From NCBI RefSeq assembly GCF_007748035.1, contig NZ_CP036278.1, positions 1-64,000 of the forward strand: a DNA stretch of 64,000 nt. The letters run 5' to 3'. This stretch comes from Aeoliella mucimassa (GTDB lineage: Bacteria; Planctomycetota; Planctomycetia; Pirellulales; Lacipirellulaceae). The notes under the pieces are model-generated. The model made no database searches and was not told the origin of the DNA. It saw only the letters and a program-made list of their open reading frames with translations. Below, one piece after another: positions 16,546 to 61,090 of the stretch (the first letter of the stretch is position 1; each line of letters starts with the position of its first letter). A program made the position numbers and the translations under genes.

Positions 16546-16870
16546 GGGATAGTTTCCCAGCACCGACTCGATAGATTCCCAAGACCGACGATAGTTTCCC
16601 ACTGCTGGGCAAATAGATTCCCAATTTACCCACCGATGGGAAAATTGAATCTTCGCCCACTCTATAAAACCAGTGGTTTTCGCTCCCGAATAGATTCCCA
16701 TTTCCCAAAACGCATCGAGTGGGAATCTATTTTCCCGCTGGGAATCAATCGCAAGTCGTTTGTTAGCAATGAGTTGCATCAACATCTCTGCGATAGTTGC
16801 CCAAAATAGATTCCCACCCATGGGAAACTATTTTGAGATGGGAGTTAGGGGTTGGGAGTTGGAAGTTAGA
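16546..16870 (+). repeat. Composite repeat copy A, block 1 (phased TGGGAATCTATT array)
   Basis: This block iterates the 12-bp word AATAGATTCCCA (reverse of TGGGAATCTATT) and close variants. Starts at 16548, 16570, 16590 and 16612 are spaced 22, 20 and 22 bp; then an inverted pair at 16689 (AATAGATTCCCA) and 16720 (TGGGAATCTATT), further variants at 16739 and 16805, and an inverted partner at 16821. A separate small palindrome AAACCA-G-TGGTTT lies near 16666-16680. The same block occurs at 36530 and, inverted, at 60771-61090. In copy A the array is followed directly by the IS110-type element, which separates it from block 2 at about 18076. Confidence 0.8.
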
Positions 16871-16896: not shown

Positions 16897-17850
16897 TCAA
16901 GTCTCTTTGGAGCATTTCCAGTCCGTTTTTGTTTTGATCATGGCATTGAGTATCAGCAGTAGTTTTCGCATGCAGGCGGTGAGAGCGGTCATCTTGGCTT
17001 TGCCTCGCTGCAGAAGTTGCTGGTAGTGTTCGCGGATAATCGGGTTGTGCTGGGTGGCCACAAGAGTGGCCATGTAGAGTCCCTGACGCACCGCCGCTCG
17101 ACCGCCGCCAATCATACGCTTGCCACGCAAGGTTCCGCTGTCGCGGTTGATCGGTGCCAGCCCTGCCAAGCGTGCCACTTCGCGACGATTGAGAGTGCCC
17201 AACTCCGGCATATCGGCGAGCAAGGCCGCCGCCGTCGTCGTTCCTACGCCAGGCACCGTGACTAGCAGCGACGAGCGTTCTTGAAACTGAGGATCGGCTT
17301 TGATGAGCTGTTGAATCTGTTGGTCGAGCTGCTCCAGTTGTCGTTGGTAGAAGTCGATCGCTTCTTCGATCGACTGACGCACCTGCTCATCTCGCTGCGT
17401 GCCTCGCCGATTCTTTTCCCGTGTCAGAGCATCACTCACCTGCTGACGACGAGTTCGGAGGGAGCGGAGTTTTTGCTCGTTTTCCGAGGGTTTTTGGGTT
17501 TCTTTGGGCTGCATCAACACGGCATAGCGGGCGATCACCAGCGCGTCGAGGCGATCGGTCTTGGCGAGCTGACCTTGCGCGCGGGCGAAGTCGCGAATCT
17601 GACGTGGATTGACGACACTCACCGCAATCCCTTGCTCGCGAAGGAAGTCGACTAGCATGCGTTCACAACCTCCCGTGGCTTCCAGGCAGGCGTGGGTCAC
17701 CTGATGCTGCACTAACAACTGCCGAAGTTGCTGGCATCCTTCTTGACCGGCAGACCAATGATGCATCTGCGGTTGCCCCGCAACGACGATGTCCCAGTGG
17801 TATTTGGAAACATCGATCCCAATCCAAGTACTTTGCAAATGGTTTTCCAT
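16897..17850 (-). CDS. IS110-family transposase (DEDD recombinase)
   Basis: A 317-residue bridge-RNA-guided recombinase. Seen: the RuvC-like catalytic segment GIDVSKYHWD at residue 12, CLEATGGCE near 55-63, KTDRLDALVIARY near 97, a coiled middle (RQQVSDALTREKNRRG, then a Glu/Gln-rich helix), and the C-terminal Tnp20-type domain with VPGVGTTTAAALLADMP and LAGLAPINRDSGTLRGKRM, where the Ser of DSG is the expected nucleophile. The length and all motifs look intact, so the element could be active. It lies on the minus strand inside repeat copy A. It is unrelated to the IS903 and ISKra4 elements elsewhere in the window. Confidence 0.95.
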   Translation of the reverse strand: MENHLQSTWIGIDVSKYHWDIVVAGQPQMHHWSAGQEGCQQLRQLLVQHQVTHACLEATGGCERMLVDFLREQGIAVSVVNPRQIRDFARAQGQLAKTDRLDALVIARYAVLMQPKETQKPSENEQKLRSLRTRRQQVSDALTREKNRRGTQRDEQVRQSIEEAIDFYQRQLEQLDQQIQQLIKADPQFQERSSLLVTVPGVGTTTAAALLADMPELGTLNRREVARLAGLAPINRDSGTLRGKRMIGGGRAAVRQGLYMATLVATQHNPIIREHYQQLLQRGKAKMTALTACMRKLLLILNAMIKTKTDWKCSKET

Positions 17851-18075: not shown

Positions 18076-18310
18076 GGTCCAGGAGCTTCCAGCGACGCAG
18101 CCCCACCACCCGCGTTACCCACACGCGCAGCAGTGAACGCCCACGCAACCGAACATTCGCCTGCGCGTCGATACTGACATTCATTGGAATTCAAAAACTG
18201 CTAAACCATTTCACCCTCCAACAACGGACCACGGACAACAAGCAACGGACCAAAGACACCTGTCCATTAGAACACCATAGGTGGCCAATTCCCAGCGAAA
18301 ACTGGAAAGA
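18076..18310 (+). repeat. Composite repeat copy A, block 2
   Basis: This segment matches block 2 of the copies at 36.84-37.12 kb and 60.42-60.72 kb (inverted). Shared words: GAGCTTCCAGCGAC, a CACACGCGCAGCAG(T/C)GAACGCC stretch leading to TTCGCCTGCGCGTCG, and a hairpin-bearing end CACCTGTCCATTAGAACACC followed by AGGTGGCCAATT and CAGCGAAAA. Between them a CAACGGACCACGGACAAC-like low-complexity run is shared with the 60.4-kb copy but replaced at 36.9 kb. No gene is seen. Confidence 0.65.
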
Positions 18311-36529: not shown

Positions 36530-37115
36530 TCGCGAATAGATTCCCAATTTACCCACCGATGGGAAAATTGAATCTCCGCCCACGCTACAAAACCAGCGGT
36601 TTTCGACCTCGAATAGATTCCCATTTCCCAAAACGCATCGAGTGGGAATCTATTCTCACGGCGTCTGGCGGTCGCAAGTCGTTTGTTAGCAATGAGTTGC
36701 ATCAACACCTCCGCCGAAAGTGCCCAAAATAGATTCCCATGGGTGGGAAAGTATTTTTGGGAGGAGTTAGGAAACAGGATTCGGGGGACAGGGGAGTTTG
36801 GGATTTATGATTTCTGAGTTGCGGATGTGATCTTGAAGGAGCTTCCAGCGACTGAAAGATCTAGCCTACCGCTTACAGCCTAAAGCCCACAGCTTTACCC
36901 ACACGCGCAGCAGCGAACGCCCACGCAAGCAACCCTTCGCCTGCGCGTCGCTAGTATTCTGGCATTCGGAAAAGCATCACATCGCAATCACCTTCCATCA
37001 CTAAAAAGCCAACAGCCAACAGCCGATAGCTGAAAGCCGACAGCCAAATACACCTGTCCATTAGAACACCACAGGTGGCCAATTTCCAGCGAAAAATGCG
37101 AGATCGGAGAATCCG
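36530..37115 (+). repeat. Composite repeat copy B
   Basis: The only copy with both blocks uninterrupted. Block 1: AATAGATTCCCA at 36535-36546, an inverted pair AATAGATTCCCA (36612-36623) and TGGGAATCTATT (36643-36654), and a second facing pair near 36728 and 36744; the tandem array seen in A and C is reduced to one unit here. Block 2 (about 36837-37113) has GAGCTTCCAGCGACTG, AGCCTACCGCTTACAGCC, CACACGCGCAGCAGCGAAC and CACCTGTCCATTAGAACACC. The end matches the hairpin region at 60.42 kb with AGATCGGAGAATCC. Confidence 0.8.
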
Positions 37116-60423: not shown

Positions 60424-61090
60424 CGATCTAGCATTTTTCGCTGGAAATTGGCCACCTGTGGTGTTCTAATGAATAGGTTGTTTGTTGTCCGTTGTTCGTA
60501 GTCCGTTGTTGGAGGGCGGAATGATGTAACCGAGTGAATATGAAATTCACTGAAACCATCGACCACGCAAGCGCGCTGTAGGAGCGGTCTCTGACCGCGA
60601 TAGCCCTTGTGTTGGGTTCGCTGCTGCGCGGTTAGTAAAGCGATAGGCTTTAGGCTGTAAGCGGTAGGCTAGATCTTTCAGTCGCTGGAAGCTCCCTCAA
60701 GATGACATCCGCTTACCACTATTCCGCATTCCGAAATCCCCAATCCGAAATCACCTAACTCCCAACTCAAAATAGTTTCCCACCGATGGGAATCTATTTT
60801 GGGCAACTATCGTGGAGGTGTTGATGCAACTTGTTGTTGTCAAACGACTTGCGATTGATTCCCACCGCGAAAATAGATTCCCATCGGATGCGTTTTGGGA
60901 AATGGGAATCTATTCGAGGTCGAAAACCACTGGTTCTGTAGAGTGTGTGTGGATTCAATTTTCCCAACGGTGGGTAAATTGGGAACCTATTGCTGTGTCG
61001 TGGGAATCTATTTGGGAGCGGTGGGAATCTATCCATCGCGGTGGGAATCGATTGGCTCGAGGGTGGGAATCTATCTCGATTGGTGTCGGG
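60424..61090 (-). repeat. Composite repeat copy C (inverted)
   Basis: Block 2 lies at 60424-60720 (CGATCTAGCATTTTTCGC, GGCCACCTGTGGTGTTCTAA, GGCTTTAGGCTGTAAGC, CAGTCGCTGGAAGCTCC) and block 1 at 60771-61090, reversed relative to copies A and B. The tandem array has five units whose TGGGAA starts lie at 60980, 61001, 61022, 61042 and 61064, spaced 21, 21, 20 and 22 bp. Inverted pairs occur at 60771/60787 and 60872/60903. The copy is bounded by an ISKra4-type element at 60414. Confidence 0.8.

What the first reader, a model, noticed from the sequence alone, without database searches (positions are those of the whole stretch)
60980..61075. 21-bp-phased array of a 12-bp word inside a dispersed repeat
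In copy C, TGGGAA(T/C)C(T/G)AT units begin at 60980, 61001, 61022, 61042 and 61064 (steps 21, 21, 20, 22). Copy A has four units of the reverse word at 16548, 16570, 16590 and 16612 (steps 22, 20, 22). The 8-10 bases between units are not conserved, so the word and its spacing are what selection or copying maintained. Steps of about two helical turns place every unit on the same DNA face, as in iteron or protein-loading arrays. Copy B keeps only one unit, so array length varies. This does not match an element I know.
Basis: seen in the sequence. Interest (0 to 1): 0.78.

Follow-up and report, generated by a model that had tools for sequence, protein, structure and literature searches.

The report
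Species-specific dispersed repeat with phased word array
The repeated 12-letter word is real and marks about 130 copies of a roughly 650-bp composite DNA element scattered between the genes of this bacterium; a same-genus genome has an element of similar plan spelled with a different word, so the words look like docking sites for an unknown DNA-binding protein, but no partner protein or function has been shown.

Summary
The array is real. TGGGAATCTATT (<=1 mismatch) occurs 764 times in this 6.6-Mb genome against 5 for a reversed control. It belongs to a composite intergenic element of about 650 bp, about 125-133 copies: a sharp 45-bp left end, heptamer tracts and hairpin-like modules, a gap-free 226-bp core with the word at fixed positions on both strands, and a variable edge of 0-4 further words. 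Of 67 steps, 66 are 20-22 bp; 14 unrelated spacer types all give 19-22.

Corrections: the first spacer is often conserved by descent, and the array is optional (24 of 70 copies lack it). The tightest constraint is on three words inside the core palindromes. No covariation, coding signal, Rfam, phage or plasmid match was found; GTAG-type REP membership was tested and not met. No other genome searched holds the element. A same-genus genome holds one of similar plan with another word (GTTTTGGGCCAAC, 57 versus 0), but with array steps of 13-20 bp, so two-turn phasing is not general.

Best reading: clusters of sites for an unidentified DNA-binding protein, carried on an old, mosaic, MITE/BIME-like dispersed element. 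The function is inferred, not shown.

The parts
60980..61075 (+). Copy C array: five words at 60980 (the last core word), 61001, 61022, 61042, 61064
   Evidence: family step distribution
60766..60991 (+). Copy C 226-bp core: palindrome P1 about 60769-60800, P2 60872-60914, P3 about 60956-60981
60435..60478 (+). Copy C left end (LE), promoter-like 45-bp motif
   Evidence: 133 matches genome-wide
60477..60510 (+). Copy C heptamer tract 1
60583..60630 (+). Copy C hairpin-like module HP
60671..60708 (+). Copy C hairpin-like module H2
60730..60752 (+). Copy C heptamer tract next to the core
36535..36760 (-). Copy B core, no array
36825..36862 (-). Copy B module H2
36904..36954 (-). Copy B module HP
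37052..37095 (-). Copy B left end LE
16548..16623 (-). Copy A array: core word at 16612 plus words at 16590, 16570, 16548
16612..16837 (-). Copy A core
16897..17850 (-). IS110-family transposase ORF of an insertion sequence that splits copy A; not part of the element itself
   Evidence: Pfam DEDD_Tnp_IS110 and Transposase_20
18080..18098 (-). Copy A remnant of H2 beyond the insertion sequence
18124..18173 (-). Copy A module HP
18258..18301 (-). Copy A left end LE

Best explanation
The array is the variable right edge of an old, species-specific, composite intergenic repeat with about 130 copies. Its right half is a cluster of double-stranded binding sites for one sequence-specific protein that has not been identified. 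Three invariant words at fixed distances inside the core palindromes seed a complex; degenerate half-matches and 0-4 further direct words, spaced 20-22 bp so that they lie on one helical face, let it extend outward. The left end looks like a promoter, so the complex probably also affects transcription that starts there. Shown: copy number, anatomy, fixed core spacing, step distribution, scarcity of mutation in the internal words, species specificity, and an element of similar plan with another word in a same-genus genome. Inferred: that a protein binds, that it is one protein, the promoter, and any effect on transcription or on chromosome structure.
For: Word 764 against 5 control. Core of constant length, words at constant positions on both strands in 39 sampled copies. 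Array steps 20-22 with zero background, 14 unrelated spacer clusters at 19-22: word and spacing persist while spacer letters change. Internal palindrome words carry 4 minor alleles in 36 columns against about 1 per column elsewhere among conserved columns. Stems do not covary, and the P1 left arm drifts while its right arm stays fixed, as expected of duplex sites rather than RNA stems. Sister family in the same genome with TGGGGGC words and a G001 family with GTTTTGGGCCAAC keep similar plans with other words, as co-evolving sites would.
Against: No binding protein found and no experiment. The G001 arrays have 13-20-bp steps. First spacers are shared by descent, so the steps are not all independent. 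The constraint test was refined after a broader test gave p 0.10. Consensus scan finds no sigma-70 promoter in copy C. Some sampled copies were chosen for likeness to copy C.
Confidence: 0.45

Rival explanations
1. A non-autonomous mobile element (MITE-like) whose words are transposase-binding sites, with the array acting like the multi-site end of a Tn7- or Mu-type transposon. Words look clean because only copies with good sites propagate.
For: About 130 dispersed copies with a sharp left end and unrelated flanks; present in one species and absent from relatives; similar plan with another word in G001, as fast-changing recombinase families would give.
Against: No element-borne gene in the sampled third of the genome other than inserted IS elements; no terminal inverted repeats; variable right end; no recent copies (closest pair differs at 13 of 226 positions; no long near-identical pairs except shared IS DNA); internal words avoid even rare substitutions.
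Confidence: 0.3
2. A family of small RNA genes: LE is the promoter, P1, P2 and P3 are RNA hairpins, and the array is a row of single-stranded motifs in the transcript.
For: LE has -10-like hexamers (TCTAAT, TATAAC; TTGAAT-16-TCTAAT in some family-2 copies); the core plus array folds better than shuffles (z -6.6).
Against: No covariation: helix pairs equal shuffles, pair 10-29 broken in 11 of 36 copies, 11-28 unpaired in 35 of 36. The folding score is expected for any sequence made of a word and its complement. No Rfam match. No consensus promoter in copy C.
Confidence: 0.12
3. The array is only a decaying minisatellite edge: a 21-22-bp unit duplicated in tandem, with spacing set by slippage and not by any protein.
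For: First spacers are shared by descent; copies with 0, 1, 2, 3, 4 units number 24, 30, 13, 1, 2; the G001 step lengths differ.
Against: Words persist while unrelated spacers occur at the same length (14 clusters, all 19-22); Tandem Repeats Finder does not report the copy C array; the same word is fixed inside the core on both strands.
Confidence: 0.1

Closest known systems
REP/BIME repeats (GTAG- and CGTC-tagged palindromes; PMC3733652, PMC2817692)
   Same: High copy number, intergenic, palindromic units in mosaics, family specific to a species; targets for insertion sequences, as described for REPs (PMC1525189)
   Different: Much larger (about 650 bp), no GTAG/CGTC tag seen on the word palindromes, promoter-like left end, gap-free 226-bp core, phased direct-word array; the RAYT-like gene examined has its own hairpins
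BrickBuilt MITE with 23-nt tandem repeat in Porphyromonas gingivalis (PMC4596501)
   Same: Species-specific intergenic element with a leader, a tail and a variable array of unit close to two helical turns; promoter activity reported there
   Different: BrickBuilt repeats a whole 23-nt unit without spacers and has small inverted-repeat ends, 19 copies; here a 12-bp word with variable spacers, about 130 copies, word also fixed inside a core, no inverted-repeat ends found
Intergenic heptamer repeats (TAACTGA arrays of Beggiatoaceae, Cyanobacteria and Bacteroidetes; PMC4679880)
   Same: Short intergenic heptamer tracts, many sets per genome
   Different: Heptamer tracts here are minor modules inside a larger element and have other letters
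Tn7-like and Mu transposon ends (multiple TnsB or MuA sites; from general knowledge)
   Same: Several protein-binding sites about two turns apart near one end
   Different: No transposase gene, no matching opposite end, variable site number, no fixed terminus found

Membership tests
REP (GTAG/CGTC super-families) with RAYT | 20-40-bp palindrome tagged by GTAG or CGTC | tested here: not met
   Word palindromes P1, P2, P3 read in all aligned copies carry no GTAG or CGTC tag at their ends
REP (GTAG/CGTC super-families) with RAYT | Cognate tyrosine transposase flanked by the repeat | tested here: not met
   13 Y1_Tnp matches. Copies near the word are IS200-like insertions into it; the RAYT-like gene at C1:1323018 has its own GTAG-containing hairpins and a family-2 element on one side only
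MITE | Terminal inverted repeats | tested here: not met
   LE and the right edge are not inverted copies of each other
MITE | Target-site duplication | not testable with these tools
   Right end variable and no close relative with empty sites
Tn7/Mu-type transposon end | Cognate transposase gene within an element | tested here: inconclusive
   None in 39 sampled elements apart from inserted IS110-family genes; two thirds of the genome not read
Iteron origin | One or few loci next to a replication-initiator gene | tested here: not met
   About 130 dispersed intergenic loci; Pfam on window genes near copies shows no Rep protein
Structured small RNA | Covarying stems | tested here: not met
Structured small RNA | Transcript | not testable with these tools
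   No expression data available
Known RNA, phage or plasmid element | Match in Rfam, phage, plasmid or viral collections | tested here: not met

The most novel reading that the evidence does not exclude
A genus-level class of chromosomal site clusters in which each species has its own word in a similar palindrome-plus-array plan, so that a DNA-binding protein and up to a hundred or more dispersed site clusters change specificity together: a chromosome-wide nucleoprotein system without a described counterpart.
Probability: 0.25. Interest if true: 0.82.

Novelty: new variant of a known kind. Interest (0 to 1): 0.6.

Why it matters
Dispersed bacterial repeats are usually short hairpins or transposon remnants. 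Here about 130 old copies keep three 12-bp words almost free of mutation while the rest diverges, and a same-genus genome keeps a similar plan with a different word. If the words are protein sites, this is a natural case of a DNA-binding specificity and a genome-wide set of sites changing together, and a simple pull-down with the word could name the protein.

Tried and rejected
Protein coding: an open frame runs from GGAGG..ATG through the core in copies A and C, but variation is equal at the three codon positions and the frame has stops in 8 of 37 copies; for family 2 only 18 of 41 are open and P1-P2 distances are not multiples of three. RNA structure: no covariation. Rfam, phage, plasmid and viral-contig searches: nothing. 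Other genomes: a core variant gave none; the word palindrome gave two hits, in Peptoniphilus and Dyadobacter, which I take as chance and did not study. Replichore polarity: GC skew puts the origin near 0 and the terminus near 3.2 Mb; element orientation shows no consistent leading-strand bias. Neighbouring genes: array-side gene co-directional in 25 of 36, weak, from a home-made gene caller. Synteny for empty sites: relatives too distant. Recently copied pairs to define the unit: none beyond shared IS sequence. A first count of private substitutions, all four words against all other positions, was not significant (p 0.10); restricting to conserved columns and internal words, chosen after seeing that the edge word is looser, gave a strong result, so that test is partly post hoc.

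Full report
OBSERVATION. All coordinates in the finding hold. The window holds 26 words at up to two mismatches against 2.2 expected. Genome-wide, TGGGAATCTATT at up to one mismatch occurs 764 times (358 forward, 406 reverse) against 5 for the reversed pattern. Copy C as a DNA query finds relatives only in its own genome among 59 searched, and in those relatives the word never approaches the own-genome count.

WHAT IT BELONGS TO. I read 100 stretches of 20 kb plus the window, 2.06 Mb or about a third of the genome. They contain 39 full-length cores, about 125 when scaled up. The core is 226 bp and aligns without a gap in 36 copies; 70 distinct copies differ on average at 14% of positions. Similarity extends about 300-400 bp to the left of the core and only 0-50 bp to the right. 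The left boundary is sharp: a 45-bp LE, consensus TTTTCGCTGGGAATTGGCCACCTGTGGTGTTCTAATGGACAGGTG, with 133 matches in the own genome and none in 58 relatives. Between LE and core lie heptamer tracts and two hairpin-like modules, HP and H2. The full cores in the sample have LE and HP on their left, most also H2, in the same order.

THE ARRAY. After the last core word, 24 of 70 copies have no further word, 30 have one, 13 two, 1 three and 2 four. Steps are 19 (1), 20 (12), 21 (22) and 22 (32); none at 17, 18 or 23-26; background 0 of 12,172. Copy C is one of the longest. Spacers are partly shared by descent (TGCCCAGCRK, CGTGAGCGN, GCTGTGTCG), which lowers the number of independent observations, but 14 unrelated spacer clusters still all give steps of 19-22. 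The 70 copies include loci picked for similarity to copy C, so the counts are not a random sample. Phasing of about two helical turns is supported in this family.

CONSTRAINT. Shared variation sits in blocks between the words, and blocks are linked only locally, which points to recombination or gene conversion among copies. The three words inside the palindromes (P1 right arm, both arms of P2) carry 4 minor alleles in 36 columns over 70 copies, against about one per column in other conserved columns. This contrast was made after a broader test gave p 0.10, and the edge word is looser (13 minor alleles), so I give it moderate weight. The closest pair of copies still differs at 13 of 226 positions: there is no burst of fresh copies.

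NOT RNA STEMS, NOT CODING. Pair counts do not exceed shuffles; pair 10-29 of P1 is broken in 11 of 36 copies, and 11-28 is unpaired in 35 of 36. The low folding energy of core plus array is expected for any sequence built of a word and its complement. Coding was rejected. No Rfam, phage, plasmid or viral match.

RELATIVES OF THE PLAN. In the same genome a second family repeats the plan LE-P1-middle-P2 with TGGGGGC words and a P2 centre reading CGAATCGATTT; 41 members were collected, with P1-P2 distances mostly 100-102 or 117-121; its P2 pattern is absent from 58 relatives. Some of its LE copies read TTGAAT-16-TCTAAT or end in TATAAC, which is why I call LE promoter-like; a consensus scan of copy C itself finds no promoter. 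In G001, labelled same genus, the word is GTTTTGGGCCAAC, 57 exact hits against 0 for the control and none in the own genome. Its elements have a palindrome with a 23-nt centre, further word-like sites, and words repeated on one or both sides; a core motif gives 62 hits against 1 for the control and background elsewhere in the family. I read this as the same plan, but homology was not proven by alignment. The G001 steps are 13-20 bp, so two-turn phasing is not general.

INSERTION SEQUENCES USE IT AS A TARGET. An IS110-family element sits inside copy A and inside elements at C1:4663023 and C1:4693221; an IS110-like ORF lies inside the element at C1:2607007-2608793. An IS200-like element lies immediately 3' of TGGGAATCTATT in 5 of the 7 copies whose left junction could be read. 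Bacterial repeats as targets of insertion sequences are known for REPs (PMC1525189).

MECHANISM. The best reading is a cluster of protein-binding sites: invariant words in the core seed a complex, and the array lets it grow outward along one face of the helix. Rivals are a non-autonomous transposon with transposase-binding words, an RNA gene, and a decaying minisatellite edge. GTAG-type REP membership was not met: no tag, and the RAYT-like gene examined closely has its own hairpins. MITE membership fails on terminal inverted repeats and could not be tested on target duplication. Missing are the protein, any transcript evidence, and a close relative.

Noticed in passing
G000 C1:6526681-6527037 and loci L276-L281, L286: An IS200-like element lies immediately 3' of the word TGGGAATCTATT in 5 of 7 copies whose left junction was read, so the repeat is a favoured IS200/IS605-type target.
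   Followed up: partly
window 16897-17850; L081 7127-8080; elements at C1:4663023 and C1:4693221: IS110-family insertion sequences sit inside four copies of the repeat, at related positions near a CTAC sequence; possibly guided targeting.
   Followed up: partly
own genome, 41 members collected, e.g. L171-L200: A second dispersed family with TGGGGGC palindromes and P1-P2 distances near 100 or 120 bp; one copy lies near the RNase P RNA gene (L171).
   Followed up: partly
L282 (C1:1323018): A RAYT-like transposase gene flanked on both sides by hairpins containing GCGTAGCCTGGTGGCGCGA, a candidate REPtron.
   Followed up: no
C1:2231913-2251912 (L072): A 20-kb stretch with G+C near 50% and unusual codon use but eight long ORFs, probably a foreign island.
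   Followed up: no
own genome: LE matches are unevenly oriented, 50 forward and 83 reverse, without a clear link to replication direction.
   Followed up: no
window about 60520-60540 and other LE-side regions: GGAGG followed by ATG and an immediate stop codon (ATGTGA, ATGTAA) recurs downstream of LE in many copies.
   Followed up: no
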